Part shown: one piece after another, positions 2 through 43,133 of the stretch | How positions within the stretch are numbered: position 1 is the first letter of the stretch | Layout: each line of letters opens with the position of its first letter | From: Candidatus Saccharimonadota bacterium | GTDB lineage: Bacteria; Patescibacteriota; Saccharimonadia; Saccharimonadales; Saccharimonadaceae | Reading direction: 5' to 3' | DNA: 43,276 nt | NCBI GenBank assembly: GCA_017514975.1 | Contig: JAFWIF010000014.1 | Location: forward strand, 116,070 to 159,345 | Made by a program: the position numbers and the translations under genes | The notes under the pieces: model-generated | The model's database searches: none | Told to the model about the DNA's origin: nothing | Seen by the model: only the letters and a program-made list of their open reading frames with translations

Positions 2-1513
2 GTTGGTATCCTGCACAACGGAGAAGAAACTCTTGGCTTTTTAAATAACGAGCCTATTGAAATTCCTAACGAAATCCAAAACAAGAAATATTATATTAAC
101 CTCGTAAATAATCAGGCTCTCGATAAAGAAAAAATTTACACGATTACTGCACGGATTAACAATAATCTCCATACTGAGTTTGGAATCAAAAATCTGTATC
201 ATCGTATGATTTTTACTGCCTGCGCTTTGGTGGCCGAAAGGTACGGAGCGAAACTTCAAAATGTAAAAGATATGGGATATAGAGTATTTCATGACCATGT
301 CTCTGATGTTCTTTCAAATTCGCTCGAAGCTAATAAGAATCAAAACTCCAAAATTAAGATTCTGCTCGATGTTTTTTCTGAAATTAGAATGAACATCTCA
401 GAGAACCAACCAGCGATTAATAATTTTATTGATTGCGTCTGCGAGATTTCTGACTGCATTAATTCGAACGAGTGGCGCGGCGAAGATGTAATGGGTATCT
501 TCTTTAATGAGTTTAATCGTTATAAAAAGAAGTCCGAAGCTGGGCAGATATTCACGCCTGAACATATAACCTCATTTATGTATCGTTTAATCGGCGTGAC
601 TGAGAACGATTATGTTGGCGATTTCTGTTGTGGTTCCGGAGGTTTCCTTGTTAAATCCATGAGTAATATGATGAAACAAGCTGGCGGATACGAGACGAAT
701 AAGGCACGAGAAATCCGAAGGGAACATTTATTTGGTATTGAGTTTGATCGTGAAATATATGCCCTAGCTTGTGCGAATATGATGATTCATAAAGACGGCA
801 AAACTAATCTCGAACAAATGGACACCAGAAGCGATAAGGCTTGCGAATGGATTGCCTCAAAGCCAATAACAAAAGTATTAATGAACCCGCCATACGAGAA
901 TAAATATGGTTGTATTGAAATCGTAAAGAATGTGCTTGATAACGTTAAACCAGGGACGCAATGTGCTTTTATTTTGCCAGATAAAAAACTTGAAAAGGTT
1001 TCAAGGGCTGCGATTAATCATATCTTGAAATATCATAGACTTACAAAAATAATTAAATTGCCGGAGCCTTTATTCTTCGGCGTCGGGATAACGACCTCGG
1101 TTTTTGTATTTGCAGCCTGGGAACCGCAAAACAATCAAGAGATTTTTGCTTGCTATATGGAGGATGATGGTCTTGAAACTGTTAAAAACCAAGGTAGGCA
1201 CGACGTAAAAAATAAATGGCAGGCAATCGAAGATTACTGGATTGATGCTATTTACAAACAAAAGGACGAAAAATACCATACTGATCAATGGATAAAACCC
1301 AATGAACATTTGTCGTATCAGATGCCTGAAAAGCCTTTTGAGATTTCAGAGGAAGATTTCAAGAAGACTGCTATGGATTATATCTGCTTTAAGAATGGCA
1401 TTGATACCAAGGAGTTCGGCGAGAATCTTCTTAATGCTGCTCTGTATGGCAGTGAAGTTACATCCGATGATACTGGAGTTAATATCAAGATAGGTGGCGG
1501 TTCAAATGATTGA
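2..1513 (+). CDS. hsdM: N-6 adenine DNA methyltransferase (HsdM-like or type IIG-like), 5' end outside window
   Basis: The frame is open from base 2, so the gene enters from the left edge; 503 codons are visible and the ATG at 206 is internal. It would methylate adenine in the site recognised by the next gene product. Visible motifs are a GQIFTPEHI segment near 541, the SAM-binding motif GDFCCGSGGF near 619-650, and the catalytic NPPY at 884-895. The about 68 residues before position 206 are not typical HsdM; an N-terminal nuclease domain beyond the edge, giving a fused restriction-methylase, is possible but cannot be seen. The stop overlaps the start of the specificity gene by 8 nt. The block is richer in A and T than the rest of the window, which suggests transfer. 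Methylase identity is firm; the subtype is not. Confidence 0.9.
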   Translation, partial: VGILHNGEETLGFLNNEPIEIPNEIQNKKYYINLVNNQALDKEKIYTITARINNNLHTEFGIKNLYHRMIFTACALVAERYGAKLQNVKDMGYRVFHDHVSDVLSNSLEANKNQNSKIKILLDVFSEIRMNISENQPAINNFIDCVCEISDCINSNEWRGEDVMGIFFNEFNRYKKKSEAGQIFTPEHITSFMYRLIGVTENDYVGDFCCGSGGFLVKSMSNMMKQAGGYETNKAREIRREHLFGIEFDREIYALACANMMIHKDGKTNLEQMDTRSDKACEWIASKPITKVLMNPPYENKYGCIEIVKNVLDNVKPGTQCAFILPDKKLEKVSRAAINHILKYHRLTKIIKLPEPLFFGVGITTSVFVFAAWEPQNNQEIFACYMEDDGLETVKNQGRHDVKNKWQAIEDYWIDAIYKQKDEKYHTDQWIKPNEHLSYQMPEKPFEISEEDFKKTAMDYICFKNGIDTKEFGENLLNAALYGSEVTSDDTGVNIKIGGGSND

Positions 1514-2564
1514 TGTGAGTGGATGGGGCGAGTTCAGAATAGAAGATATTTTTAATGTGGTTAAAGGAACTCGTTTGACTAAAGCGGATATGAAGGACGG
1601 AACAATTAAATTTGTCGGTTCGTCTGCTATGAATAATGGCGAAACACATAGAATTGCTAATAACGAGAGGTTACATCCTGCAAATACTATCACTGTTTGC
1701 TATAACGGTAGTGTAGGCGAGACATTTTATCAGGATGAGGAATTTTGGGCTTCAGATGATGTAAATGTACTATATCCGAAGTTCAATATGACAAAGAATA
1801 CGGCAATGTTCGTTTGCCCTATTATTAGATCTGTCGGCAAGAAGTATGCATTTATTGATAAATGGAAGCAGGAAGATATGAAAAATGCAGTTATTAAACT
1901 TCCAATTAATATGGAGGGCGATCCTGATTGGGATTATATGGAATCCTATATGAGGGCTGTAATGGAAGAATCTGAAAAAAGCATTGAGAATCTGAAAAAA
2001 GCTGATGATACAAAGCATCTGATTGATGTAAGTGAGTGGGGTGAGTTTAGGGTTGGTGATTTATTTGATAAACTGACCTTAAAATGTCGTAAATCTGATT
2101 TTAACAAAGCAGTTGATTGTTCGGAGATTCAGACCGAGGAATTTTCATTGCCTCTTACTAATGCAAAGCACTTTAACAATGGCATTCAATTTTATGGAAG
2201 ACCTGATGAATGGGATTCAGCAGAAATGACTATTGATATTGTTAGTAATGGAGCGATTGCGACAGGTGATGTTTATGCTCAACCTCAAAAGACAGGTGTT
2301 CTTTGGGATTCGTATTTAGTCAAGTGCAAATATGATATAGGGTCTGAATTTGTTTTACAGTATATGGCTTGTGTTATCCAGAGATGTATTAAGCAGTATT
2401 TTGGATGGGACGATAAATGTACTTGGGATAAGGTCAAGGAACAGATGCTTCGACTCCCGATAGATGCAAACGGTGAACCCGATTGGCAATATATGGAAGA
2501 CTATATGAAAAGACGGCTTAATGAAGCAGAACTGGCCGTATCGCAATTACAATTGGCGGTATAG
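1506..2564 (+). CDS. hsdS: Type I-style DNA specificity subunit (HsdS) with two target-recognition domains
   Basis: 352 residues that would give the methylase its target site. The protein is an internal duplication. Each half opens with a related phrase (IDVSGWGEFRIEDIF and IDVSEWGEFRVGDLF) and ends with a conserved stretch (KLPINMEGDPDWDYMESYM and RLPIDANGEPDWQYMEDYM) followed by a charged helix. This is the classic HsdS plan of two recognition domains separated by helical spacers. The ATG at 1506 is chosen over the GTG at 1494 because AGGTGG lies 8 nt upstream of it. The gene overlaps the methylase end, so translation is probably coupled. The recognised sequence cannot be predicted from this. 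No HsdR helicase-nuclease is in the window; it may lie to the left or be fused to the methylase. Confidence 0.88.
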   Translation: MIDVSGWGEFRIEDIFNVVKGTRLTKADMKDGTIKFVGSSAMNNGETHRIANNERLHPANTITVCYNGSVGETFYQDEEFWASDDVNVLYPKFNMTKNTAMFVCPIIRSVGKKYAFIDKWKQEDMKNAVIKLPINMEGDPDWDYMESYMRAVMEESEKSIENLKKADDTKHLIDVSEWGEFRVGDLFDKLTLKCRKSDFNKAVDCSEIQTEEFSLPLTNAKHFNNGIQFYGRPDEWDSAEMTIDIVSNGAIATGDVYAQPQKTGVLWDSYLVKCKYDIGSEFVLQYMACVIQRCIKQYFGWDDKCTWDKVKEQMLRLPIDANGEPDWQYMEDYMKRRLNEAELAVSQLQLAV

Positions 2565-3528: not shown

Positions 3529-3561
3529 ACTTTATTTTGCGCGGTAACTTTATTTTGCGCG
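3529..3561. repeat. 15-bp tandem repeat at the end of the surface-protein gene
   Basis: ACTTTATTTTGCGCG occurs at 3529-3543 and 3547-3561 with an 18-bp period. The second copy carries the last codons and TAA of the surface protein, so the tail Arg-Ala-Lys-stop is repeated just downstream. Confidence 0.8.
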
Positions 3562-6500
3562 ATAGCGTCGCCATATCCTTATGGCATAATAAATGCTGCC
3601 GGATGCGCCCAAGACGCCAAAACCTAATATAACGAGGTAGCGCACTAGCGTGTCGCCAGTTTTTGGCGGGGCGGGGTTGACAGGGAGTGATTTTGGAGCA
3701 GGTTTAGGAAGGAGTGTGTTTGTCCATTCATAGACATCGCTACCTTCAACGTAGTCACCTTTGGTTGCGCGATAAGCCTCGGGGACCACCCCTTCGCCCC
3801 AATCCACGACGCGGGCATTTTTGGGAATAATAAATCTATAGATTTGAGTATTGTCGCCGTCGAGCGTCCAACCGCCGTCATCGCTTACGAGTGTCGCGCG
3901 CGCCATGCGCCTTGAGCCGTCGAGTTCGTAGGTCAAAGAGCCGTTCAGGAAGCTGGTCGGACGAGTGCCGGCTTGATTATTGTTATCGTTCCAGTTAATC
4001 TTTAACGCGACTTCTTTCATCGCGATATTCTCAAAAACTAAACCGTCAATATATTTGTTGTCTTTGACTTCTTCCGACCAAACCGTCTTGACGAGCGTTT
4101 CGTCAACATAAATGTCTGCCTTGATTCCCTTGAGCATCTCAGCGTCGTTTTCTGGAGTAGAGACGACGATTTTGAGTCGTTTTGGCACGGCGTCGTAATC
4201 GATCAGAGGGTCGTCGCCGCGCTTTTCCTCGACAATCCAAGCGTAGGTGTATGAATTATGAACACCGTTGCCGTGACTGTTAGTTGCATCGTTAAGAGTG
4301 CCCGGATAATAATCAGTGTCACCGATAGTGGTTGTTGGTCCATCGAAGCGAAAAGCGTCAAATGATACTTTTCCGCTAGCATCATTCGTAGCGGTCAAGG
4401 AAGCTCCAGTCGCCATATTACCGGCAACGCTACTGTCTGGCGTAAGCGTAAAATCAAACTGGCCATCTACAAGCTCGCCACCATTGAAAACTTTCGCAAT
4501 CGGCTCTATCGCCAGCTCGCCAAGAGAAAGTTTGTCGGTATTCTTGAGCGCGTATGTTGTACAAGCGATACCGGTCTGCCAAACATAGTTCGCACCAGTT
4601 GCACGACTTTTGACGGCAAATTCTGACCAGGGTGTGTTGGGGTCGGAGCCGGTCGTAATGATTTTATCGTCAACAAGTTTGAGCCCTGTCTGTTTGGCGA
4701 AAGTAACTGAGCTTAAATCGTTTGTGTTAGAGTCAAGCGCAAAGCTCTCGCCGCCAGTACCAAACTTTGCATTCTCAATTGGCAAACGATCAAAATCAGC
4801 GTCATCGTTCGGTCTCACCCAATCTTGACTCTCTGGAACATCTAGGTCTTCGCCGTAAAAGATAAAGGTCGTATCGGGATTGGCGCCTTCGATCGAAACG
4901 GTAAAGTCGATATCGGTACCCGAGCCGCCAGATAATACTTGCCAGTCAGAGCTAGTGCCTGGAGTGATGTTGCCCTGCCCGACTTTGACATAGTTGCTAA
5001 ACATAACCCCATCATCGCGCGATGCGCGTAAAATTGTGCGATAATATTCGCCGTTATTGAGATTACCCCATACGTCCGGCTCGTTAACACTATAACTATA
5101 CGAACCGGCACTCATGTCTGGGTCGTAAGGATTGCGGTCAATGTATTTGTTGTGGTCGTGCGTACGTTCATTGCCGGTATATTTCGGAATACGTTCAAGG
5201 TTTTTAAAGGTAATCTTATTGATCGTAATCGCTACATTGTGTTTTTTGCCGTTAACGTCAATTGCAGCATTTTCGTAGATGATTTTAATCGGATTTGCGG
5301 TGCGATCAATCGTGTAATCGCCTGAATCTGGCCATTGGATTGTACTTTGTGTGTTTAGCCAAGCATAGTTCTGGCTTTGAACAAGAATCAGCTCAGGATC
5401 GGTGCCGCCTTGTTCTGGTGCAGACGCTTCGATGCCTTCAATCTTAAAAGGTACTTCGCCGATATAAGCAATGCGGTAATATGTTTTGGGTACATCAAGC
5501 TGCTCGGTGGCCCAATCGGTCGTCGAAATTTTATAGACGCCTGGGGCGAGATGGCCTGCGCCGTTTGGATTGTAATCTTTTTGGATGTTTAAGTTGGTGG
5601 TACTATCCGGAAGCGGATTGATATCTGGCAAAGTAGTGTGCTTCTTAATGCTATCGCGATCAATAATTAAATCGATATAGTCGCGCTTACTGTCGATCAT
5701 GATAGCGCTCTGTCCGTCTGGAGTAAATTCGGTTTGCTTGTTAAATAAATACAATACATCGCTGTCATTGGCGGCAATGTAATATTCCGAGCCAGCACGG
5801 CCGCGGCTGTTTTTAGTGAGCCAAATATTAGAATTCTTGGCAGAAATCTGCGTCAGTTTAGGAAAAGCTGCAGGAATATCATATACATTGACACCGAAAA
5901 TTTCGCGCCCATACTCGGCGGCACCAGTAATCATAGAATCTTCCTTCGTAATAAGTTCGTAATCGGTGGAACCGTTATAGTAATCGCCCGGCCATGCGCC
6001 TCCCGTGATGCTGTGCTGTTTGTTTGTTGGGCCAATGTTAGAGTTATCCATATTGTCGAGGCGCAGATAGGTGAGATTTGAGCAGCCCTCAATTAGGCCA
6101 TCCATATTGAGGATTTTCGGCATAGCGCCAAAACGATGTAGATCTAAGGCATCCAATCCGGTGTCGTCCTTGAAGAAGTTCTTTAAAGAGACGGCCTCCG
6201 ACGCATCTAGGCCGGCGAAGGCAAACTCTGTCGTCTTCGTAAAGCCCTCGAACATACTGGTTGCGCGAAAGCCGTTAAAACTAAACTTGACGCCAATATT
6301 ATTCATCTCGAAGACGACTTTCTTAACGTAGGGTCTGATATCAGTACTATCGTTATAGCTCTTTTTCCAGATATTGTCCCAGTCGGCCTTGCTGTCGAAG
6401 TTATACGATAAGCCAGCAGAGGTCATATTGTTGCGCGGCTTAATCATCAATGTGCCGTTAGATTTGAGTTCGAAGTACCAGGTATCAAAGTAGCGAGACG

Positions 6501-6621
6501 CAGTCATAGCTCCGCCAGACGTAGCTAGAACCTGCGATTGCGATATAAAAAAGCTCGATATTAACGCTAGAACGCTAATAGCAATCATTGAACAGGCCTT
6601 AAATTTTGACTTTAGTAGCAT
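3550..6621 (-). CDS. Large sortase-anchored surface protein with leucine-rich, pilin-like and Cna-B-like regions
   Basis: 1023 residues. The ATG at 6621 is chosen over the TTG at 6645 because GAGAGGTGAT lies directly before it. A signal peptide (residues 1-33, cut after VLA) is followed by a region like BspA/DUF285 surface repeats (MFEGFTKTTEF to LTYLRLDNM). A long beta-rich middle comes next. A pilin-type isopeptide domain follows (FDFTLTPDS to YAWIVEEKRG), then a Cna-B-like domain with NWNDNNNQAGTRP. The tail is PPKTGD, a hydrophobic helix and RRYRAK, a sortase signal with P in place of L. It is likely displayed on the cell surface and used in contact with a host cell. No sortase is in the window. 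The domain calls are by pattern; the surface location is firm. Confidence 0.88.
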   Translation of the reverse strand: MLLKSKFKACSMIAISVLALISSFFISQSQVLATSGGAMTASRYFDTWYFELKSNGTLMIKPRNNMTSAGLSYNFDSKADWDNIWKKSYNDSTDIRPYVKKVVFEMNNIGVKFSFNGFRATSMFEGFTKTTEFAFAGLDASEAVSLKNFFKDDTGLDALDLHRFGAMPKILNMDGLIEGCSNLTYLRLDNMDNSNIGPTNKQHSITGGAWPGDYYNGSTDYELITKEDSMITGAAEYGREIFGVNVYDIPAAFPKLTQISAKNSNIWLTKNSRGRAGSEYYIAANDSDVLYLFNKQTEFTPDGQSAIMIDSKRDYIDLIIDRDSIKKHTTLPDINPLPDSTTNLNIQKDYNPNGAGHLAPGVYKISTTDWATEQLDVPKTYYRIAYIGEVPFKIEGIEASAPEQGGTDPELILVQSQNYAWLNTQSTIQWPDSGDYTIDRTANPIKIIYENAAIDVNGKKHNVAITINKITFKNLERIPKYTGNERTHDHNKYIDRNPYDPDMSAGSYSYSVNEPDVWGNLNNGEYYRTILRASRDDGVMFSNYVKVGQGNITPGTSSDWQVLSGGSGTDIDFTVSIEGANPDTTFIFYGEDLDVPESQDWVRPNDDADFDRLPIENAKFGTGGESFALDSNTNDLSSVTFAKQTGLKLVDDKIITTGSDPNTPWSEFAVKSRATGANYVWQTGIACTTYALKNTDKLSLGELAIEPIAKVFNGGELVDGQFDFTLTPDSSVAGNMATGASLTATNDASGKVSFDAFRFDGPTTTIGDTDYYPGTLNDATNSHGNGVHNSYTYAWIVEEKRGDDPLIDYDAVPKRLKIVVSTPENDAEMLKGIKADIYVDETLVKTVWSEEVKDNKYIDGLVFENIAMKEVALKINWNDNNNQAGTRPTSFLNGSLTYELDGSRRMARATLVSDDGGWTLDGDNTQIYRFIIPKNARVVDWGEGVVPEAYRATKGDYVEGSDVYEWTNTLLPKPAPKSLPVNPAPPKTGDTLVRYLVILGFGVLGASGSIYYAIRIWRRYRAK

Positions 6622-6751
6622 ATCACCTCTCAAATCTCGCATCAACCGACGCGAACATATATTCCTGTTGTTTATATTAGCACAACCATAATCAAAAAAC
6701 CATGACCATTATATTTTCGGCTTGTCGCGCACCGCAAGTTAAAAGTATATT

Positions 6752-9903: not shown

Positions 9904-10653
9904 CTATTGAAGATGTCTGCTAACAACATCTTTGATGTCGTTTGGCAAAACGATGACCGTCTTTTGAGAAGGGTCGGAAGAGATTTTTTCGAGAGTCTGA
10001 AGCGTACGAATTTGAATACCACCTGGAGTGCGAGCCAAAAGACTGGCGGCTTCAGAGACGGATTGGGCGGCAGATTTCTCACCTTCGGCAACGATAATGG
10101 CGGCACGGCGTTCGCGTTCGGCCTCGGCTTGCTTTGCCATCGCGCGTTTCATATCGGCAGGAAGTTCGATATTTTGAAGCTTTACATTCTCGATATCAAT
10201 ACCCCATTTGTCCGTCTCTTTGTCGACGATCTCTTTAATTTGCACCGAGATCTCATCGCGCTTACTCAAAAGCTCGTCAAGTTCGAAATTACCAGTGATG
10301 TCGCGCAAGGCAGCTTGAGCGAAATTGGTCGTCGCGTAAATATAGTTAGTAGTTTCGAGGAGTGCTTTTGCTGGGTCGAGCACACGAAAATACACAATAG
10401 CATCAACGCCGACGGTAACGTTGTCTTTGGTGATAACCTCTTGCTTGGGGACGTCGATAGGAGTCGTACGGACATCGACATTCACCATCGTCTGAACGAA
10501 AGGTAAAATAACTCGAAAGCCTGGATCCTTGACGCCGCTATAGCGCCCAAGCGTAAAGACGACTCCGCGTTCAAACTGGCGAATGACACGCGCACCACCA
10601 GCTATAGCGATAATTGATATAAATAAAACGATAATAATAAATGCAGCCAACAT
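9904..10653 (-). CDS. Slipin/stomatin-like SPFH (band 7) membrane protein
   Basis: 249 residues, typical of bacterial slipins. The N-terminal membrane helix (residues 2-22) is followed by the SPFH signature (RVIRQFERGVVFTLGRY, then PGFRVILPF and VDVRTTPIDVPKQEVITKDN). A charged helical region rich in Ala, Glu and Arg (MAKQAEAERERRAAIIVAEG) and a C-terminal tail complete it. Such proteins oligomerise at the membrane and organise local lipid-protein domains; many pair with an NfeD protease partner, not seen here. AAGGAA precedes the ATG. The gene lies downstream of the candidate RNA at 10738-11402, separated from it by a strong terminator. Confidence 0.95.
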   Translation of the reverse strand: MLAAFIIIVLFISIIAIAGGARVIRQFERGVVFTLGRYSGVKDPGFRVILPFVQTMVNVDVRTTPIDVPKQEVITKDNVTVGVDAIVYFRVLDPAKALLETTNYIYATTNFAQAALRDITGNFELDELLSKRDEISVQIKEIVDKETDKWGIDIENVKLQNIELPADMKRAMAKQAEAERERRAAIIVAEGEKSAAQSVSEAASLLARTPGGIQIRTLQTLEKISSDPSQKTVIVLPNDIKDVVSRHLQ

Positions 10654-10737
10654 ATACTTCCTTTTTGGTTATGCTTTTTGTGATTATTTTATGTTAGACA
10701 GACAATTTCTGCAATAGTACAAGATGATAGACGACTG

Positions 10738-10793
10738 AAAAATACCCCCGAGAATGACTCTACGCGGGAAAATAACGTAAAGCTTCTCGAGGG
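10738..10793 (-). terminator. Strong terminator closing the 660-nt candidate RNA
   Basis: Minus strand CCCTCGAGAA pairs with TTCTCGGGGG over ten positions with one G-T pair (10784-10793 with 10745-10754). TATTTTT follows at 10744 down to 10738. Confidence 0.8.
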
Positions 10794-11402
10794 TTCCGAA
10801 ATGAACGAACGATCGCATTTTGATTGCTCTGCGGATGCGATTAGTCCGCGGTTTGCCGCGAGATAGATTCGTAAACGAATCCGTCACGTTCGCTCGTGGC
10901 AAACAAAAAAACAGACAGGCTTCCATCGCGGCGACAGAGTATTTGTCATCTGTCGTCGAGTAGATTGGAGGACTGGCGCACAGTGCGCTGAAAGCGAGAG
11001 GGTTGGCCCGCATTCATTCAGGCGCACGTGCGCCAATGCTAGAGTTGAAAGCTTCTCTTCTATTAATAGGAGAACACGAGAGTAAACAAAGAAGCAGTCA
11101 ACCCTAGGATTGACGCAGCCTCTCGAAAGAGGCGTGCGTGAACAAAGCAAAATTCCTATTAGGCGTCATCTTAAGCCAATGAAGCTTATAGATAGGGTGC
11201 GCCCCGAGGATCTTTGCTTTTTCATCTGTTTTTTTTAAAAAACGACAACGATATACCAATCGCCGTCACGGCTAAACTCTAGCTACGGAGCTAATTTTTT
11301 GATAGTCCTTAGACTTGCAAGCCGGCTCTCTATTTTGATTGAAAAGAGAAAGACAAGCTAAAAGCTATGGGACTGCCAAAAAAGCAGCTAGAACTTAGCT
11401 TA
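10738..11402 (-). ncRNA. Candidate large structured non-coding RNA (about 665 nt)
   Basis: This stretch has a consensus minus-strand promoter (11409-11437) and a strong terminator, and no convincing reading frame. It is packed with hairpins: TAGCT/AGCTA 11280-11293; TCTCT...AGAGA near 11327-11349; ACGCA-GCCTCT-CGAA-AGAGGC-G-TGCGT 11113-11139; CTATTAATAG; GGCGCACGTGCGCC 11021-11034; CGACAGA/TCTGTCG 10932-10955; GATTCG-TAAA-CGAATC 10866-10881; CGCGG/CCGCG 10847-10860. Long-range pairs are AGTCC 11304 with GGACT 11370, AAAGCAAA 11144 with TTTGCTTT 11213, and TGGCGCAC 10974 with GTGCGCCA near 11027. I find no RNase P, tmRNA or SRP signature. It could instead be two adjacent RNAs. Transcription is inferred, not shown. 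Confidence 0.6.
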
Positions 11403-11408
11403 TTGTTT

Positions 11409-11437
11409 ATTGTATCATACTTTACGATAAATGTCAA
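11409..11437 (-). promoter_or_regulatory. Near-consensus promoter of the candidate large RNA
   Basis: Minus strand TTGACA (11432-11437), 17-nt spacer, TACAAT (11409-11414). It matches consensus at 11 of 12 positions, the best match noticed in the window, as expected for a highly expressed stable RNA. The predicted start is near 11402. Confidence 0.8.
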
Positions 11438-11462
11438 CATTTTTTATAAATTATGCTAGAAT
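11434..11462 (+). promoter_or_regulatory. Extended -10 promoter, leaderless gene at 11470
   Basis: TCAACA (11434-11439), 17 nt, TAGAAT (11457-11462) with TGC just before it (extended -10). The ATG at 11470 is 7 nt after the -10, so the mRNA should start at or within a base of the start codon. The -35 overlaps the -35 of the opposite-strand promoter. Confidence 0.65.
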
Positions 11463-11469
11463 ACTAGTA

Positions 11470-12162
11470 ATGAGCGCAATTATCAGGATAGGAGAGAGCG
11501 CCGAAGCAAAGCAGGTGGGAGAGCTGGGCGCCGCATTGACAAAGGTGCACCGCAGAGGCGCGCGTGTGGCGGCAGGCTTCGTAGTGCCGCGCGAGACGCG
11601 GCTAACGAATGGTCTTAGCAACGAGATTTTGCGAGAATTCGACCGCCTCAAAACAAAACAGGTCGTACTAAGAGCATCAACAGAAGACGGCGTCGAAACA
11701 GAGTCACTGCGTGACATCAAGAGACAGGCATTGCTCGGTGCAGTAAGCTATCTGCAAGATAATGCGCGACGGCGCGGTAGGCAGGCCGCAATTATCGTAC
11801 AAGAACAGCTCTTTGCGGAAGTATCGGGCAGAAGTTACTCGATCAATCCGGCAACACTAGACGCAGACGAGGTGCTTATCGAGGCTCAATTGTGGATGAA
11901 TCGTACGGTGCTCGCAGGCGAAAACGAGACGGATTTAATCGTGATACGCAAAACGACGGGCTCGGTAATCCTAGAGAGCGAAGACGAGGGGGAAATTTGC
12001 CTAGAACCGAGACAAGTTCAGGAGATATACACCTTGACAAGACAGGTCGAAAGAGAGTTTGGCGAAAGAATTAGTTTGGACTGGGCGTATGACGAAGGAA
12101 AACTTTATGTCTTGCGAGTGAAGATGATAAATCACGACATAATAACGAGTTTCCAACAATGA
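11470..12162 (+). CDS. PEP synthase/PPDK-type ATP-binding domain fragment, stand-alone
   Basis: 230 residues resembling only the N-terminal nucleotide-binding part of PEP synthase or pyruvate phosphate dikinase. Landmarks are GELGAALTKVHRRGARVAAGFVVP (here broken by residues 18-41), VVLRASTEDG in place of the usual VRSSATAED, and IIVQEQLFAEVSGRSYSINP. The swivelling phosphohistidine domain and the PEP-binding barrel are absent, and the middle of the domain is shortened. The full reaction is therefore not possible; a regulatory or degenerate role is more likely. The start at 11470 is preferred to 11431 because an extended -10 lies between them. The stop overlaps the rarA start (ATGA), so it is translationally coupled to a repair gene, an odd pairing. 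Confidence 0.75.
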   Translation: MSAIIRIGESAEAKQVGELGAALTKVHRRGARVAAGFVVPRETRLTNGLSNEILREFDRLKTKQVVLRASTEDGVETESLRDIKRQALLGAVSYLQDNARRRGRQAAIIVQEQLFAEVSGRSYSINPATLDADEVLIEAQLWMNRTVLAGENETDLIVIRKTTGSVILESEDEGEICLEPRQVQEIYTLTRQVEREFGERISLDWAYDEGKLYVLRVKMINHDIITSFQQ

Positions 12163-26630: not shown

Positions 26631-29600
26631 TTATCGCATTTTGCTCTTAGCCTTCTCGATATCGGCTTGGCGTTGCGCCTCAATCTTCGCTCTCTCTTCC
26701 TCTATATTCGCACTGGAGCTGTTATTGTCGTGAATAAAGTTTATTTGTTTGTCCGATAATTGCCCTGTATACTTTCGGTCTTCAGAGGCATACTTTTCTA
26801 ACATGACGTCAGCAAGTACCTGTGCGCTCGATGGGCGCCCATCCGGTGGAGCATCCTTACTCTTCCTCGCTAGAGTGTCGTAAAATGATGACTGCAGGCT
26901 GCCAAGTTGCGACATATTCATGCCCGATAGAATTTGTTCCTGCCTCCCCGTGTCAAGCTGATCAAAAAGCGTCGCCATCTGTTCATTTGCTGTGATATTA
27001 CCCTTCTGGGACGAAAGCGCCGCACGCCAAGCCTGATCGGACATTAAATCCACAGCCGGGTCGGCAGCGATATGTTGGAAGAAGTCTTTATTTGCCTTTC
27101 CGTAAACTTCTGGCGAGACGCCTTTCTCGGCCTCATCTTGAAAAATATCACTCTTGCGCTCGATTACTTTGAGCACACCCTCATCCTTATCGCCAATCTC
27201 AGCATCACCAATTCTTTCGTTTTTAAGATTGCCTAGAAACTCTTCGCTATTTAGCGATTTGGCAAATGCTATAGATATAGGGTCGTCCGAATTGGCTAAA
27301 AGCGCATTTCTGATTGCTCCGCGATAGTTTTTGTCAGTAGCGAGCTTTGTGCGAGCTTCTTTATCTGAAACAATCTTATCTAATATGCGGTACGTGAACT
27401 CTGGTTTATAGTTTGTACCTCGTATTAACCCCACTATGGCGTTCTCGTCCGTAATACCCATTACATCCTCCTCTCCGCCGAGGCTTTCGATTATAGCACT
27501 TGGGTCGGCATTGTTGGCGGCGTAGCTTTCAATAGCTTTACGAATCTGTTCGTTATAACTAGTAAGTCTATTGGTACGCATTCTCATCTCTAATAGCTGT
27601 TTTCGTGAAGGTTTCTTGACGTTCTCTAACTTGCCAATCTCTTTTTCGTCCGAGTCTGCTATATATTGCCCTCTCCTTGTTTCAAGTCGATTCTTTTTGT
27701 TCATCTGCCTACGATACGCCCAATCCCCAACCCGCGTGTGGTCCTGCATTTTTTGTTTTACCCATGGAGAAACCGTGCCCTGCGCTTTCCCCTTCATCTT
27801 ATCAAGTATGCCGGTTATCTGAGAGATGGCATTTAGAGACTGCTTGATTGCGCTCGGGATTAAGAAAAAAGGTACGACACTAATCAATAGCGCAGAAACA
27901 GCAACAGTGCCCATATTCTCACTGCCAATATTTGCACGGATAATTAATTTTCCCACAAAACTACCACCATAAACAAGAAATGAGCATATCGGATAAGCAA
28001 ATAGAAGGCCCTTGAACAGTCCAAACCATTTATCGAAAAAGAGCTGTTTAAGATTAGGGAGAATATAGCAAATAAACGCTAGTGGCGACACGATAACGAG
28101 TATCACCGCCAGAGCGTTTCTTACGGCCAACAGAATAAACAGGAATAATCCAGCGATAGCAATAGAAACTATCGCGCCTACAACAAGCATTAAAAAGCCA
28201 CCCAGTACGCCCGTCGCCCAGTCTCTAGCGAACTTAAATAGAACAAAGAGTATGCCAGCCGAAGCGGCGATTGCCACTACGAGGATGGCGGCATTAGCTC
28301 CAGTGTTACCTGGAGAGGCCGCGTTCGTAAACACGTCGCCCGCGTCTTTATCGGCGTTTATCGCAAGTTGAATGCTATCTCCTGCCTTGTTCAATAAGGC
28401 TTCAATTCCCCCGCCAGCAATATTAGCTGCGTCTATGGCAAGTTGACAAATAACGTACGAAAGATTAATTAATATAGCTGCTATGATTAATTTTGGTAAT
28501 ATTTTCTTGATACCGTAATTATCTATACCTACACCTGTTAGCTGAGAGAAAATAACAACAAGAAACAGGATAATGAAGATTACATTTGCGAGATTGCGAA
28601 AATAGCTCCATGCTTGCTGAGTGCCGTTATTCGCCTCAAATAATTTTGGCTCTATTTTTAAATAATCATCTATGCGTTCATACAGAAAACCCACAAGACT
28701 TTCTAGCGCGCCAGTAACTGGACACAAAAACCAGCCAACTGCTGGAGGAGCGGTGCTCCAGCAGTCTAGCTTGTCTTCCTCAGTATCTACGCACGCATCT
28801 TGATCTTGATCGTAGGTTTGGCCGTTGGCCTCGCAGTCGTTGATTTTTTGCTGGGTAGCGGCATCAACGGTTGAACCGCTAATATCTGGGACGTCATCCG
28901 TAGTGCCAGTCAAGTCAGCGTTTTCACTGTTGACAGTAGCCGTATCCAGGAATGAGCCTATCTTGCTAACAAGATTAGTTTTTAAGTTACTCCAACTCGT
29001 AGCTATAGACATAGGCGCCATTTCGCCATAATAATTGCCTTTGATACTTTTTAGCTCGATATAATTCTTATTGTCGTCGGTAAAACGGAATAAAATGTCG
29101 CCATTGTTTTCGCGGAATGAGACATGCCCCACTTGATTGCCTGCGTTTTTGTCGTCCGTACATATGACGTTTGTTTTGACTTTGTTTACGGTTAGACTAA
29201 AACAGTCAGGGCCGCCACTGGCATTTGCCGTAGCCGACTGATTACTTGCTGGTTGCGATGTTGCGGTAGTCTCGTTGACGATTTTTGGCCTCTCGCGGTC
29301 GGAATATGTGTTGCGATTACTGGCGATTGTGCGGATAGACGCCTTGACGCCGTCCCAACCGTGATGAACATCGATGCCTTCAACTATCGCGGCAGGGTTG
29401 TTTTTAGTCTCATTGTAGATAACAACCCGTAAGGTGGCAGACTTTCCAGATCCGACGTATTCGATACCCTTTTCTGGCTCATTCTTGATAATTAGACTTT
29501 GATCCTCTTGGTCTGGATTATCAGAACAAATTTCGCTACTGAGCCTGCTAGAATTATCGCCGGCCTGCAGCGTAAAGCAGGCTGTACGAGCCGCATAAAC

Positions 29601-29699
29601 ATGAGAATCTGCATTGCCGAACGCAACGAGTAATGACAACGCCGTTATTAGACCGATAATCAGAACGCCGACGTAGCGCGAGAAAATAGTCCTTTTCAC
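26631..29699 (-). CDS. VirB6/TrbL-like type IV secretion membrane protein with long extensions
   Basis: 1022 residues. A signal helix (residues 12-35) is followed by an extracellular domain of about 300 residues with a Cys pair region (DCEANGQTYDQDQDACVD). A block of six to eight membrane helices then spans about residues 370-640 (from NVIFIILFLVVIF to VVPFFLIPSAIKQ). A cytoplasmic helical tail of about 380 charged residues completes it. The membrane block has the VirB6/TrbL look found in conjugation channels and in secretion loci of this phylum. The start GTG overlaps the stop of the upstream gene (GTGA). It probably forms the inner channel for DNA or protein transfer. VirB4 and VirD4 are not in this window. 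Confidence 0.82.
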   Translation of the reverse strand: MKRTIFSRYVGVLIIGLITALSLLVAFGNADSHVYAARTACFTLQAGDNSSRLSSEICSDNPDQEDQSLIIKNEPEKGIEYVGSGKSATLRVVIYNETKNNPAAIVEGIDVHHGWDGVKASIRTIASNRNTYSDRERPKIVNETTATSQPASNQSATANASGGPDCFSLTVNKVKTNVICTDDKNAGNQVGHVSFRENNGDILFRFTDDNKNYIELKSIKGNYYGEMAPMSIATSWSNLKTNLVSKIGSFLDTATVNSENADLTGTTDDVPDISGSTVDAATQQKINDCEANGQTYDQDQDACVDTEEDKLDCWSTAPPAVGWFLCPVTGALESLVGFLYERIDDYLKIEPKLFEANNGTQQAWSYFRNLANVIFIILFLVVIFSQLTGVGIDNYGIKKILPKLIIAAILINLSYVICQLAIDAANIAGGGIEALLNKAGDSIQLAINADKDAGDVFTNAASPGNTGANAAILVVAIAASAGILFVLFKFARDWATGVLGGFLMLVVGAIVSIAIAGLFLFILLAVRNALAVILVIVSPLAFICYILPNLKQLFFDKWFGLFKGLLFAYPICSFLVYGGSFVGKLIIRANIGSENMGTVAVSALLISVVPFFLIPSAIKQSLNAISQITGILDKMKGKAQGTVSPWVKQKMQDHTRVGDWAYRRQMNKKNRLETRRGQYIADSDEKEIGKLENVKKPSRKQLLEMRMRTNRLTSYNEQIRKAIESYAANNADPSAIIESLGGEEDVMGITDENAIVGLIRGTNYKPEFTYRILDKIVSDKEARTKLATDKNYRGAIRNALLANSDDPISIAFAKSLNSEEFLGNLKNERIGDAEIGDKDEGVLKVIERKSDIFQDEAEKGVSPEVYGKANKDFFQHIAADPAVDLMSDQAWRAALSSQKGNITANEQMATLFDQLDTGRQEQILSGMNMSQLGSLQSSFYDTLARKSKDAPPDGRPSSAQVLADVMLEKYASEDRKYTGQLSDKQINFIHDNNSSSANIEEERAKIEAQRQADIEKAKSKMR

Positions 29700-31027
29700 G
29701 CAGTCATCTCCCGCATTTTCTTAGAAGTTTCGATAACGGAGTTGAGCAAGTCGCTTCTGATTGTCGTCAAATTTGCATGCAGTTTCGAGAAGGCGTCGCT
29801 GGCGTTTTCGCGTTTTTCTACAACACTAGGCTCAAGTGATTGATTAGCGCAATTTAAAATATCGTTGCCTTCTAATCCTATTTGCTGACAGACTTCGATA
29901 ACATCCATACGAGCTCGAGCGAGAGTATTGAATAATTCTCCAGTCTTTATAGTATTCTTCTGACTTTCGTGTTTGTAAAAGACCTGATAAGCGTCTTGTA
30001 TTTTTGTCTTTATCTCCTCGACTGGATAATCTTGGAGAGCCGTGACGAAATCGTCATAAGAAAAGATGCGGGCATTATAAGCCAAACGAGCGCGCGTAAA
30101 ATAATCTTGGGTTAAGTCAACCGTCTTCGACAACTCTTCGTCCTTACTAAGGTCGTCTGTGGCCTTATAAACCTTTTGGAAGTCAGAAAATAGAGTATCG
30201 GCAGTAGCGTAGTATGCGTAGATGTCCGACTCCTCAATGGCTATTTCAGATAAGGCGCCGACCTCTTCTGGCAAATCTTCGTCGCTCTCTTTGCCGTAGA
30301 TTAAGTAATTGCCGTAGCGGTTCCATTTAGTCTTGAGGTCGGCGATAGCGCTGGATTGGCCTTTGGTATTGGGCTTAAGGGCGCCAGCAGACAATAGGGC
30401 GCCGATAAGGACTATAATTGCGAGGGCGCCGACGATTGAGGCGATAAGAATCGGCTTGCGTTTGCGCTTTGCCTGCTCTTTGGCCTGAACCTGTGCGGCC
30501 GCCTGAGTAGCGATAGCCTGCGAGAAAAAATCTGGAACTTGATTCGGGGTAGCCGGGCGCTGTTGGCGTCCGAGGTAATTTGAGCGAGTGCTCGTGGCAA
30601 CACGGGGTTGAGCGCTGTTGGCCGATAGATTGCTAGCCGGAACCGCGCTAGTCGTTGTGGTCGAATCGGAATTTAACGAAGGCGCAGAGGTACTAGCCTG
30701 ATACTGATTCGAACTAGGCGAGACGACAGCGGGCTGAGAAGAGACGATGTTAGGAGTATCGCTACGGAACACATCGGTAGCGGACGAGTAGGCTGGGCTA
30801 CTAGGCGTCGGTGAGGGAGACGAGGGAGACGAGGAAGGCGATTGTGGAGAAAGCGGCGGAGTAGGCGATACGGAAAATGACTGTGCGGCAGAGGTAGGAG
30901 ATGGAGTGGAAGGAGAAGGTGTCGGGGTAGGAGTCGAAGACGACATATCGTTAACGTCCGCGCCGTCATCGCTCGAAAAAGTATCATCGTGCGAAATAAA
31001 CAGCGCCGTCCCGTCGTCGTTCTTCAT
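29696..31027 (-). CDS. Single-pass membrane protein with Pro/Ser-rich N-terminal region, secretion operon
   Basis: 443 residues, not recognised as a family. Residues 25-170 are low-complexity Pro/Ser/Thr (SPTPTPS-like runs) and probably disordered in the cytoplasm. A basic stop-transfer KRKRKP precedes one membrane helix (ILIASIVGALAIIVLIGALL). The outer part of about 220 residues is helical, with two Cys (VCQQIG and ILNCAN) that could form a disulfide. It is coupled by GTGA overlap to the VirB6/TrbL-like gene, so it likely belongs to the same secretion complex. Translation should start on a leaderless mRNA from TGCTAAAAT. Confidence 0.8.
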   Translation of the reverse strand: MKNDDGTALFISHDDTFSSDDGADVNDMSSSTPTPTPSPSTPSPTSAAQSFSVSPTPPLSPQSPSSSPSSPSPTPSSPAYSSATDVFRSDTPNIVSSQPAVVSPSSNQYQASTSAPSLNSDSTTTTSAVPASNLSANSAQPRVATSTRSNYLGRQQRPATPNQVPDFFSQAIATQAAAQVQAKEQAKRKRKPILIASIVGALAIIVLIGALLSAGALKPNTKGQSSAIADLKTKWNRYGNYLIYGKESDEDLPEEVGALSEIAIEESDIYAYYATADTLFSDFQKVYKATDDLSKDEELSKTVDLTQDYFTRARLAYNARIFSYDDFVTALQDYPVEEIKTKIQDAYQVFYKHESQKNTIKTGELFNTLARARMDVIEVCQQIGLEGNDILNCANQSLEPSVVEKRENASDAFSKLHANLTTIRSDLLNSVIETSKKMREMTA

Positions 31028-31033
31028 ACTGCA

Positions 31034-31042
31034 ATTTTAGCA
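31034..31042 (-). promoter_or_regulatory. Extended -10 for the leaderless secretion operon
   Basis: Minus strand TGCTAAAAT ends 6 nt before the ATG at 31027. Confidence 0.72.
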
Positions 31043-31105
31043 TAAACATTTTGGTTTTTACAAAAAACGGAGCGAGAGTTGTTTCGCCGGCGGCTTATGT
31101 AGACA

Positions 31106-31813
31106 CTATGACTCCTCAAGTTGTGCCTGCATATCAGATAAGGCAAGGAGAAGGGCTGGGAGCTGAAGCGTATTAGCCAAGTCAGATTCGAGACGAGCGA
31201 AGCTGTCAGTGAATTCGGCCTGTGTCGCGGCGAAGGCAACGCGTTTTTCTTCATAAACAGATTGCGAGCAAATGTTTTCACAGGCAAGCAGGCTAGTAGC
31301 AAGACTGGATAAACGCGGCAAGAGTTCGAGATAATGCTTTTTGGAAGAGTCAAGCTGCGGACTAGTGAGCGTGCTAAGCCGAGTGCGAAAACTATCTAAA
31401 CTACGCACATAAGCTGCAAAGTCGTCACGAGACTGTTGGTCAAGGAGCGTAACGTGTGCGCGCAATTCAAGCAGATCGCGCAAAAACGCTTGCTCGTGGG
31501 TGAGCGTTTGATTGAACTGGTCAAGCGAATTGAGTATCGCCGAGTGCTTGCGCTGAATGTACGGATTGTCTCGAAAACGCGCGTACGCATCGTCAAAACG
31601 CGCCCGCGCAGATTGGTAGGTAGCGAGATCGCCGGACTGGAGCGACGAATTCATGATGCCAAGAACAGTAGATAACGTGGTGGCCGCATCAAAGCTGGAG
31701 TTACGTTGATATTTTTGATAGGAGACGACAAGACTAAGCGATTCGCAAACTGCGAACAATACAATAAGCGCGGCGAGCAGAAAAACTTTTGGCGAGATGC
31801 GTTCGCGCGTCAT
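31106..31813 (-). CDS. Small membrane-anchored coiled-coil protein, coupled to the acyltransferase
   Basis: 235 residues, not recognised. One N-terminal membrane helix (residues 10-32, FLLAALIVLFAVCESLSLVV) is followed by an outer helical domain of about 200 residues rich in Leu, Ala, Ser and Arg, with repeated heptad-like segments. It carries one close Cys pair in LLACENICSQ. The ATG overlaps the stop of the acyltransferase gene (ATGA), so it is made together with it. It may assist the acyltransferase at the cell wall, but only the coupling supports that. Confidence 0.72.
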   Translation of the reverse strand: MTRERISPKVFLLAALIVLFAVCESLSLVVSYQKYQRNSSFDAATTLSTVLGIMNSSLQSGDLATYQSARARFDDAYARFRDNPYIQRKHSAILNSLDQFNQTLTHEQAFLRDLLELRAHVTLLDQQSRDDFAAYVRSLDSFRTRLSTLTSPQLDSSKKHYLELLPRLSSLATSLLACENICSQSVYEEKRVAFAATQAEFTDSFARLESDLANTLQLPALLLALSDMQAQLEES

Positions 31814-40334: not shown

Positions 40335-43133
40335 TTAGAATCTCTTACGGAGAACGAGGAGAGAGATAACGCCAGAGAGGGAGGCGCCAAAAATGATGAA
40401 GGGGAGCATGAGGGATTGTTTGTTGGCGTCGTTAGTTTTTGGGTTGGCTGAGTTGACGGATTTTGGGGCAGCTTCTGTGTCTTGGTTGTTAGCAGAGTCT
40501 GTGGGAGCGATGGGGTCTGTAGGAGTGGTAGGATCTGCGGGAGAGTTAGAATCAGGGTTCTTCTCCCAGATAGCATAGAGCGTGATTGTATCGTTGTTGG
40601 TAGTAGTGAGATTGGTAATGCTCTGCTCGTCGGTGTAGCTATCGCCAGTGTCGTCTGGTTTGGTGTTCCAGTGCTTGAAGGTGTAGCCTGGTTTGGTGAA
40701 GCTGTTTTTGGTGAGGGATTTGGTGGTATCGTAGGTATGGGTTTGGTTGGTCATAGTGGTAATAATGGGGTCTTTGGAAGGATTGGGGTCGTTAGAGTCG
40801 TAGGCAATAGTGTAGGTGTTTGGTTGCCAGTTGAGGTAGAGCTTGATGGTTTGGTCGGAATGAGTGAGGTCGGCGAAGTCTGAGGATTGGTAGTCGTGAG
40901 CATGCTGGCTATAGCTTGTGCCAGTGCCGTCGGGTTTAGTATTCCAAGCGGCGGCTTTATCTACGTGGTAGCCCGGTTTGGCGGCGTTTAGACAATCTGG
41001 GTTATTGTAGTCGGTGAGGCCGGTAGAGATCATGGCTTGGCCGTAAGTGAAGATACGGTGATTCCAAGCTTGGTTGGGCTGGGAGAAGGCAGAGCCGTCT
41101 ACGATTAGCCAGCCATCAGTATCTGCGTGATAGGTTGCGCCATGCGGGTCGATGATAGTGCCGCCATTGAGGTTGTAGTTGACGTAGAGATAATAAATCT
41201 TTTTGTTGGTCATGAAGAGCTTTGCGCCTTCGGTATCGGAGCTCGAGATAGTGAATTCGGGGCCGACGAGGAGATTGTTGGTCTCGTCGTAGGTTTGGGT
41301 GTTGGGGCAGGAAGAGTTGGGGTTGTTTTGGTTGGCGGTGCAGGCAGAGGTTTTGAGAGAGTAGCCGGTTTTGGGAGCGGTTTGGACGAGACGATAGGTG
41401 CCGAGACCGAGGTTTCCGAAATTGACTTGACCGTTTTCGTTGGTGGTTCTCAAGAGACCGTCGCCGTCATTCGGAGTGTAATCTTGCCAGTTGGAACCGT
41501 TTTTAATTTGAAGTTTGAGCTTAGCGCCTTTGAGGAGTTGCTTGGAATCGGTGTCGGAGAGGAAGGCGGTGGCAGAGTGGGGCTCGGGGGGAGTAGTAGA
41601 AATAACAGAGGAGGCAAGGAGGACGGAATCGCGTTTAAAAGTTTTAGGCGCGGAATCGTAGTAAATTGTGGCCGAGTTGCTAACAGGGACATCTTCGGAT
41701 ACCTGATTATAGTAGACATTAATCCAAGTGACATAGCCGAGAAAGCGACCATTAAACTTTGAACCGTTACCATAGACGGCATTGAAGAAATCGATTAAAG
41801 CGGTGCGGCTTGATTGAGGATAGTAGCCATTCGCAATAGCATTGTCGGCGAAATTCTCGGCAGGATTGCTGGCTAAATCATAGACGGAAGGAGCGTCAAT
41901 GCCTGGGCGACCAAAGTAAATTAAAATCGTTGGAGTGCCATCGGAAGCAATATAAGTACCGTATTGGAGAGGTCGAGAAGTAACGCGAGATTTGAAGTCG
42001 GCGTAAGGTTCTCCTGAATTCGGGTTCAATTTCGTAAAAAGCGAAGTAAGATTGACGTGTTTTGCGCCCGGAAGAACATGGCCGTAGCTGATGGAAGGAT
42101 TGGCGGAGCCATCATTAGCGAGGTTAGTCGGCAGGAGAAAGAGTGGCGAAATACCATCGCCGCCTAAAGCAATATCCGTAGCGCCTGGGACGGTGTCTTC
42201 GATAAGTATCCCTTTAGGAGTGCCATCTTGACCAAGAGAAGCAAACATAGAGTCGAAGAGGGTTGGCTCAGAAACGCGGAAGCCATAGCTGGCGCGATTG
42301 TTGTGGTAGGCGCCGACGACATACTTTGAGCTATTAGTCATGCGGCTGAAATCGTGAGTCGGGGTCGCTATTTTGAAATAGTAATCAACCGAGTTAACTG
42401 TCACTTGACCGAGATAGGCGTTTTCTGGAGTAAAAACATATTCAGTTAGAACAGCCAGATTAGAGAAAGTGAAATCAGGAAGCTCGGCAAGACCGTTGGC
42501 GTTTTCGGTAAATTTAATCCAAAGATTGGCGCCACTATGATACCATTGAGCGATTGTTTCGCCAGAAGCGTTAGTAATGTTTACCCAATCAGTCGCGCCG
42601 ACCGAGAAAGGATTTTTGCCGCCAACTAATTGCGAGACAAAGGGTATCTTGACGGTGTCGCCAGTCTTGACGGTTACGCCCGGAGCAAGATGAAATTTTA
42701 CAGACAAGGAGAGGCGACTACGGGAAGAAACGGTAATATCGACAGGAGTAGCGTAGTCGTCAAGATTTTGGGAAGCGTTAGAACCCGATTGGATAGTAAT
42801 CGGCGTGCCATCTTCGCGAGTAACAGAAAAATCTTGCACCTCGACATAAGAGCTAAGGTCAGCAGCATAGGTTTCTGGAGCAACGAATGTAGAGGCGATT
42901 GCGACCAAGGCAAAAGCGAATAGGCACAACAGAGGAACCGCGAAAAGAAAACTGCGACATTTGCGACGATTGCTAGTTAAGAGACTCTTAAGATACCCCC
43001 CCCCAGAGGCTTGTTTTGTATGGGCGTCTTGCCCAGAATTTGAGGCGCGCGCATGGCGAATTTTCTCCTTGTTTTGCTTTTTTATTTTGACCTGATTTGA
43101 GGGTAGTTTAGCATTGTTTTGGGATTCCGTCAA
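40335..43133 (-). CDS. Large sortase-anchored adhesin with Cna-B-like and InlB-type repeat regions, phase-variable candidate
   Basis: 932 residues from TTG at 43133, with GAGAGGAG 8 nt upstream. A basic N-terminal region of about 58 residues, containing G44-G46 encoded by nine consecutive G, precedes the signal helix (FLFAVPLLCLFAFALVAIA). Then come a long beta-rich adhesin region and a Cna-B-like domain (LLKGAKLKLQIK to YRLVQTAPKTGY). Two Listeria-Bacteroides-type repeats follow (YLYVNYNLNGGT; YTIAYDSNDPNPSKDP with YTFKHWNTKPDDTGDSY). An Asp/Pro/Thr-rich stalk and a sorting tail NPKTND, helix, RKRF complete it. The Glu usually closing the Cna-B isopeptide bond (E in LxExxAPxGY) is Gln here. 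It would be displayed on the cell surface for attachment. Confidence 0.88.
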   Translation of the reverse strand: MTESQNNAKLPSNQVKIKKQNKEKIRHARASNSGQDAHTKQASGGGYLKSLLTSNRRKCRSFLFAVPLLCLFAFALVAIASTFVAPETYAADLSSYVEVQDFSVTREDGTPITIQSGSNASQNLDDYATPVDITVSSRSRLSLSVKFHLAPGVTVKTGDTVKIPFVSQLVGGKNPFSVGATDWVNITNASGETIAQWYHSGANLWIKFTENANGLAELPDFTFSNLAVLTEYVFTPENAYLGQVTVNSVDYYFKIATPTHDFSRMTNSSKYVVGAYHNNRASYGFRVSEPTLFDSMFASLGQDGTPKGILIEDTVPGATDIALGGDGISPLFLLPTNLANDGSANPSISYGHVLPGAKHVNLTSLFTKLNPNSGEPYADFKSRVTSRPLQYGTYIASDGTPTILIYFGRPGIDAPSVYDLASNPAENFADNAIANGYYPQSSRTALIDFFNAVYGNGSKFNGRFLGYVTWINVYYNQVSEDVPVSNSATIYYDSAPKTFKRDSVLLASSVISTTPPEPHSATAFLSDTDSKQLLKGAKLKLQIKNGSNWQDYTPNDGDGLLRTTNENGQVNFGNLGLGTYRLVQTAPKTGYSLKTSACTANQNNPNSSCPNTQTYDETNNLLVGPEFTISSSDTEGAKLFMTNKKIYYLYVNYNLNGGTIIDPHGATYHADTDGWLIVDGSAFSQPNQAWNHRIFTYGQAMISTGLTDYNNPDCLNAAKPGYHVDKAAAWNTKPDGTGTSYSQHAHDYQSSDFADLTHSDQTIKLYLNWQPNTYTIAYDSNDPNPSKDPIITTMTNQTHTYDTTKSLTKNSFTKPGYTFKHWNTKPDDTGDSYTDEQSITNLTTTNNDTITLYAIWEKNPDSNSPADPTTPTDPIAPTDSANNQDTEAAPKSVNSANPKTNDANKQSLMLPFIIFGASLSGVISLLVLRKRF
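42996..43004 (-). repeat. G9 homopolymer tract in the adhesin coding region
   Basis: Nine consecutive G on the coding strand encode Gly44-Gly46, before the signal helix. Gain or loss of one G would shift the frame and abolish the surface protein. Confidence 0.9.

What the first reader, a model, noticed from the sequence alone, without database searches (positions are those of the whole stretch)
10738..11437. Large undescribed structured RNA gene of about 660 nt
A near-consensus minus-strand promoter (TTGACA-17-TACAAT, 11409-11437) opens a stretch that ends in a strong terminator (10738-10793) and holds no convincing protein frame. At least ten local hairpins plus several long-range complements (AAAGCAAA with TTTGCTTT, AGTCC with GGACT, TGGCGCAC with GTGCGCCA) fill it. 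Signatures of RNase P, tmRNA and SRP RNA are missing. RNAs of this size that are not ribosomal are rare; the known large families (OLE, GOLLD, ROOL) are the closest comparison in scale, not in sequence.
Basis: partly seen in the sequence, partly recalled or inferred. Interest (0 to 1): 0.88.

Follow-up and report, generated by a model that had tools for sequence, protein, structure and literature searches.

The report
Orphan 665-nt structured RNA gene candidate
In a tiny Saccharibacteria genome, a site that in sister species carries a small protein gene with its own promoter and terminator instead carries about 665 bases that code for no protein and fold unusually well, so it looks like a large RNA gene found in this one species only; no transcript and no second copy has been seen to prove it.

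Summary
On the minus strand, 11402-10738 is a closed transcription unit: TTGACA-17-TACAAT promoter, a first stem starting about 3 nt after the expected +1, 11 hairpins, and a terminator with a U-run. It folds at -255.7 kcal/mol, z -10 to -12, the best of 620 windows (about 207 kb) of its genome. It has no Rfam match even at E<=10 and no credible protein frame. New here: in 28 related genomes the same site (SPFH gene on one side, PPDK_N-like gene and RarA on the other) holds a one-gene protein cassette (about 120-450 aa); in 9 it is empty. Only this genome has RNA-like content there. Within helices G-U exceeds A-C 18 to 5 (p about 0.008), favouring the minus strand as the folded one. Limits: no homologue was found in about 400 family genomes, order or phylum samples, phages, plasmids, viral contigs or GTDB contigs, so covariation cannot be tested. 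Both strands fold almost equally well, which DNA palindromes would also give. I favour a lineage-specific structured noncoding RNA gene (about 0.6) over palindromic or decaying filler (about 0.27). "Gene" is plausible; "family" is not established.

The parts
11409..11437 (-). extended -10 promoter TTGACA-17-TACAAT (TG before the -10)
   Evidence: same kind of promoter at the same place and direction in relatives; 24-nt 87.5% match with the promoter region of relative L025
10738..11402 (-). predicted noncoding transcript, about 665 nt
   Evidence: no frame, no Rfam match, z -10 to -12
11271..11399 (-). domain 1: long interrupted 5' stem (50 pairs), starting about 3 nt after the expected +1
   Evidence: MFE; z -4.5
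11244..11267 (-). domain 2: 9-bp hairpin
   Evidence: MFE; z -2.7
10905..11235 (-). domain 3: multibranch domain closed by AAAAAAACAGA/UCUGUUUUUUU, with five hairpins
   Evidence: I6, 11 of 11 complementary; z -9.8
10803..10895 (-). domain 4: three-hairpin junction
   Evidence: z -3.1
10737..10794 (-). domain 5: intrinsic terminator (stem 10794-10744, then U-rich tail)
   Evidence: z -5.4
9904..10653 (-). SPFH/stomatin-like gene downstream (79-88% identical in relatives); left flank of the cassette site
11470..12162 (+). divergent PPDK_N-domain gene; right flank of the cassette site
   Evidence: PF01326

Best explanation
The stretch is a stand-alone noncoding RNA gene of one Saccharibacteria lineage. 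RNA polymerase starts at about 11402 from a strong extended -10 promoter and stops at the hairpin at 10794-10744, giving an RNA of about 665 nt that folds into five domains, starts and ends in stable stems, and is not translated. It sits in a chromosomal cassette site (promoter - one variable gene - terminator) that in relatives carries a fast-changing protein gene; here the payload is RNA. Shown by computation: the anatomy, the exceptional folding, the lack of a frame, the synteny. Inferred: that it is transcribed and that its fold is selected. Most likely way of working (a guess, no direct evidence): a stable structural RNA that acts through its own shape or as a protein scaffold, its end stems protecting it from exonucleases.
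For: Folding z -10 to -12 against +0.8 to -4.5 for protein cassettes at the same site in 14 relatives; best of 620 windows of its genome. Promoter at the same place, type and direction as in cassette-bearing relatives. First stem starts about 3 nt after the predicted +1 and the last stem is a terminator. No frame, no SD-led ATG, no Pfam match. Next to helices shared by both strand folds, G-U on the minus strand 18, A-C 5; shuffles give 51:49, p 0.008.
Against: No homologue: 45 genus, 393 order, 394 family genomes by DNA; 385 order and 380 phylum genomes by single-sequence covariance models of two domains; phages and plasmids; viral and GTDB contigs. Hence no covariation. The + strand folds about as well (z -10.0). 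RNase P of the same genome has z only -1.2, so such an extreme z is not what every real RNA shows. No transcript data.
Confidence: 0.6

Rival explanations
1. Palindrome-rich DNA rather than an RNA gene: the cassette lost its protein gene and filled with inverted repeats (insertion of palindromic elements, or template-switch repair that perfects hairpins). The promoter and terminator are leftovers; any transcript is a by-product.
For: Both strands fold almost equally well. Palindromic noncoding elements occur in the genus: G035/G036/G011 carry at this same site a 100-nt hairpin whose arms change together (10 of 37 pairs changed on both sides, none broken) and a second diverged copy elsewhere; the same genome has a perfect 32-bp-stem palindrome after gyrA (C14:959-1083) sharing TAGCTGCTTTYTTGGCA with the RNA's first stem.
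Against: G-U over A-C 18 to 5 next to helices; no perfect palindrome with a stem of 14 or more in the region in the scan; domain 1 arms are only 80-86% complementary and rich in wobbles; no second copy in the genome; boundaries coincide with promoter and terminator.
Confidence: 0.27
2. A decayed protein gene of the cassette family (pseudogene), or a protein gene broken by assembly errors.
For: Relatives have a protein gene in this site, read from the same kind of promoter; the cargo family found in 12 genus genomes is absent from this genome.
Against: No DNA or translated similarity to the relatives' cargo beyond short weak matches; intact cargo genes fold at z +0.8 to -4.5, not -10, and decay does not create helices.
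Confidence: 0.06
3. An mRNA with a long structured regulatory leader for a short peptide or for the downstream SPFH gene.
For: SPFH lies downstream on the same strand; ORFs of 88 and 109 aa exist.
Against: A terminator with a U-rich tail lies between the RNA and SPFH; SPFH has its own SD-like site; the ORFs have no SD-led ATG and no family.
Confidence: 0.05

Closest known systems
OLE RNA (Rfam RF01071)
   Same: about 600 nt, structured, noncoding
   Different: no Rfam match; OLE is conserved in many Firmicutes with protein partners (general knowledge); this has no relative
ROOL and GOLLD RNAs
   Same: large multi-hairpin RNAs of unknown function
   Different: no Rfam match; those are often found in phages and prophages (general knowledge), no phage match here; they form homo-oligomeric complexes (abstract of PMC12286853), not testable here
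Protein cassettes at the same chromosomal site in sister species
   Same: same flanking genes, same kind of extended -10 promoter in the same direction, similar length, terminator
   Different: theirs have an SD site and an intact ORF of about 120-450 aa and ordinary folding energy; this has neither and z about -10

Membership tests
Any of the 4227 Rfam 15 families (incl. OLE, ROOL, GOLLD, RNase P, tmRNA, SRP) | covariance-model match at the curated score | tested here: not met
   gathering; E<=10: best E 0.63, all far below gathering scores
RNase P RNA | is this the genome's RNase P RNA? | tested here: not met
   RNase P found at C14:15027-15407, E 5.8e-80
Conserved structured ncRNA family | homologues in other species with compensatory base changes | tested here: not met
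   no homologue; covariation therefore untestable
Stand-alone ncRNA gene | promoter, structured stretch, terminator, no frame | tested here: met
   (sequence level only)
Stand-alone ncRNA gene | transcript observed in the cell | not testable with these tools
   no RNA-seq available
Integron attC array | paired RYYYAAC / GTTRRRY core sites | tested here: not met
   one RYYYAAC and no GTTRRRY on the minus strand, the single RYYYAAC outside the RNA

The most novel reading that the evidence does not exclude
A new class of large structured RNA that took over a protein-cassette site in one Saccharibacteria lineage: an RNA payload in place of a fast-changing protein payload, read from a promoter of the same kind.
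Probability: 0.25. Interest if true: 0.75.

Novelty: new variant of a known kind. Interest (0 to 1): 0.5.

Why it matters
Non-ribosomal bacterial RNAs above 600 nt are few and mostly unexplained. One in a reduced genome of about 0.9 Mb, at a site where sister species carry a protein, would show that a large RNA can arise or be swapped in within one lineage, and it can be tested directly by RNA-seq and probing. If it is palindromic filler instead, it is a warning that single-sequence folding scores alone can suggest RNA genes.

Tried and rejected
Rfam at permissive E-values: only chance matches. DNA similarity in genus, order and family: hits of 15-41 nt; nearly all of those inspected lie in reading frames of other genes. 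Pseudo-translation used as bait in viral and GTDB contigs: none. Single-sequence covariance models R1 and R2: only the locus itself. Homology with the structured stretch of G035/G036/G011: none. Integron attC: no. Pseudogene of relatives' cargo: no. Strong folding next to SPFH in L134, L151, L128 and L156 is tRNA-like sequence and long terminator hairpins (by eye); L180:11023-13000 is coding with repeats. The GU/AC test on RNase P (2 vs 7) was uninformative, since its MFE folds share few pairs between strands. Literature searches for large or structured noncoding RNA in Saccharibacteria or Patescibacteria found nothing.

Full report
What is there. The minus strand from 11437 to 10737 reads as one closed unit: TTGACA-17-TACAAT with TG before the -10, an expected start at about 11402, a first stem that begins about three bases later, then a terminator stem at 10794-10744 followed by a U-rich tail. 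Only three promoter sites of that quality exist in the 43-kb window, one of them at a tRNA gene. No frame longer than 109 codons runs through it. The ORFs match no Pfam family, and no ATG has an SD-like site, although the SPFH gene and relatives' genes do.

Is the structure more than chance? The fold is at -255.7 kcal/mol, 10 to 12 standard deviations below dinucleotide shuffles. It is the most extreme of 620 windows of the same length over about 207 kb of the genome; the next windows, checked with shuffles, reach -3.5 to -8.8. The -8.8 one holds a perfect 32-bp-stem palindrome after gyrA. Every domain contributes, and without the terminator the rest is still at -10.3. The number of pairs common to both strands' folds is 154, against a mean of 46 and a maximum of 107 in 120 shuffles.

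Which strand? Energy does not decide: the + strand has z -10.0. Next to the helices common to both strands, however, there are 18 G-U and 5 A-C positions on the minus strand. Shuffles give 360:340, so p is about 0.008, and seven protein cassettes of relatives give roughly even counts. G-U keeps a helix in RNA while A-C does not, so this favours a minus-strand RNA. It is a single-sequence test, thought of after seeing the folds, and should be read as moderate evidence.

Surroundings. The organism is a Saccharibacterium (inferred from its relatives); many of its nearest named relatives come from gut or faeces of herbivores. The order DsbA-like, SPFH, site, PPDK_N-like gene, RarA is conserved, with SPFH inverted in some species. 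In 9 relatives the site is about 30-43 bp. In 28 others it holds a protein frame of about 120-450 aa, in the printed cases read in the direction of our RNA. Of the 14 whose site was printed, nearly all show an extended -10 promoter (TGNTATAAT) and a terminator-like hairpin; our promoter region matches that of L025 over 24 nt at 87.5%. Nine of these proteins were collected as a weakly similar set; a model of them finds a protein in 12 of 45 genus genomes and none in ours. The cassette transcripts of relatives fold with z between +0.8 and -4.5. So the site is a variable one-gene cassette, and only in this genome is the payload RNA-like.

Relatives of the RNA. None were found by DNA search in genus, order or family genomes, by covariance models of two domains in order and phylum samples, in phages or plasmids, in viral contigs or in GTDB contigs. 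The single-sequence models are weak (0.59 bits per position), so a remote homologue could be missed. A relative with the kind of conserved motifs that OLE or GOLLD show would probably not be. The RNA is an orphan, which is why covariation is untested and why I do not call it a family.

Explanation. I commit to a lineage-specific, stable, untranslated structured RNA (0.6). The main rival is palindromic filler in a variable site (0.27). It gains weight from equal folding of both strands, from covarying palindromes at the same site in three relatives, from the gyrA palindrome that shares a 17-nt core with our first stem (the reversed control pattern gave two hits too), and from the modest z of a real RNA, RNase P (-1.2). 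It loses weight from the G-U excess, the many wobbles, and the exact fit between structure, promoter and terminator. What the RNA does is inference; a scaffold or structural role is the likeliest, with low certainty.

Comparison with known things. No Rfam family matches. OLE, GOLLD and ROOL are alike in size and in being large structured noncoding RNAs, not in sequence or conservation; homo-oligomers are known for them (PMC12286853, abstract). I rate it a new variant of a known kind, with the caution that existence as an RNA is not yet shown.

Noticed in passing
L081:4255-4660, L082:4322-4730, L080:7450-7828 (relatives G035, G036, G011): At the same site, upstream of the cargo promoter, a roughly 400-nt palindromic noncoding stretch; its 100-nt hairpin has 10 of 37 pairs changed on both sides and none broken among three species, with a diverged second copy elsewhere in each genome (L176-L178). 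Possibly a repeated structured element of that lineage; no Rfam match.
   Followed up: partly
L192:959-1083 (G000 contig C14, after the gyrA gene): Perfect 32-bp-stem palindrome enclosing two hairpins, single copy, sharing TAGCTGCTTTYTTGGCA with the first stem of the window RNA; these are the only occurrences in the genome within 2 mismatches.
   Followed up: partly
window 9904-12162 and the matching site in L007-L032, L072-L085: Variable one-gene cassette site between SPFH and a PPDK_N-like gene, with a strong extended -10 promoter and mostly unclassified, fast-changing, often low-complexity small proteins.
   Followed up: partly
window 3550-6645, 26631-31813, 40335-43133: Large predicted surface proteins and a cluster of membrane/secretion-like genes, judged by eye only.
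   Followed up: no
window 206-2564: Restriction-modification-like genes (N6-adenine methyltransferase and type I specificity-like subunit) near the window start, judged by eye only.
   Followed up: no
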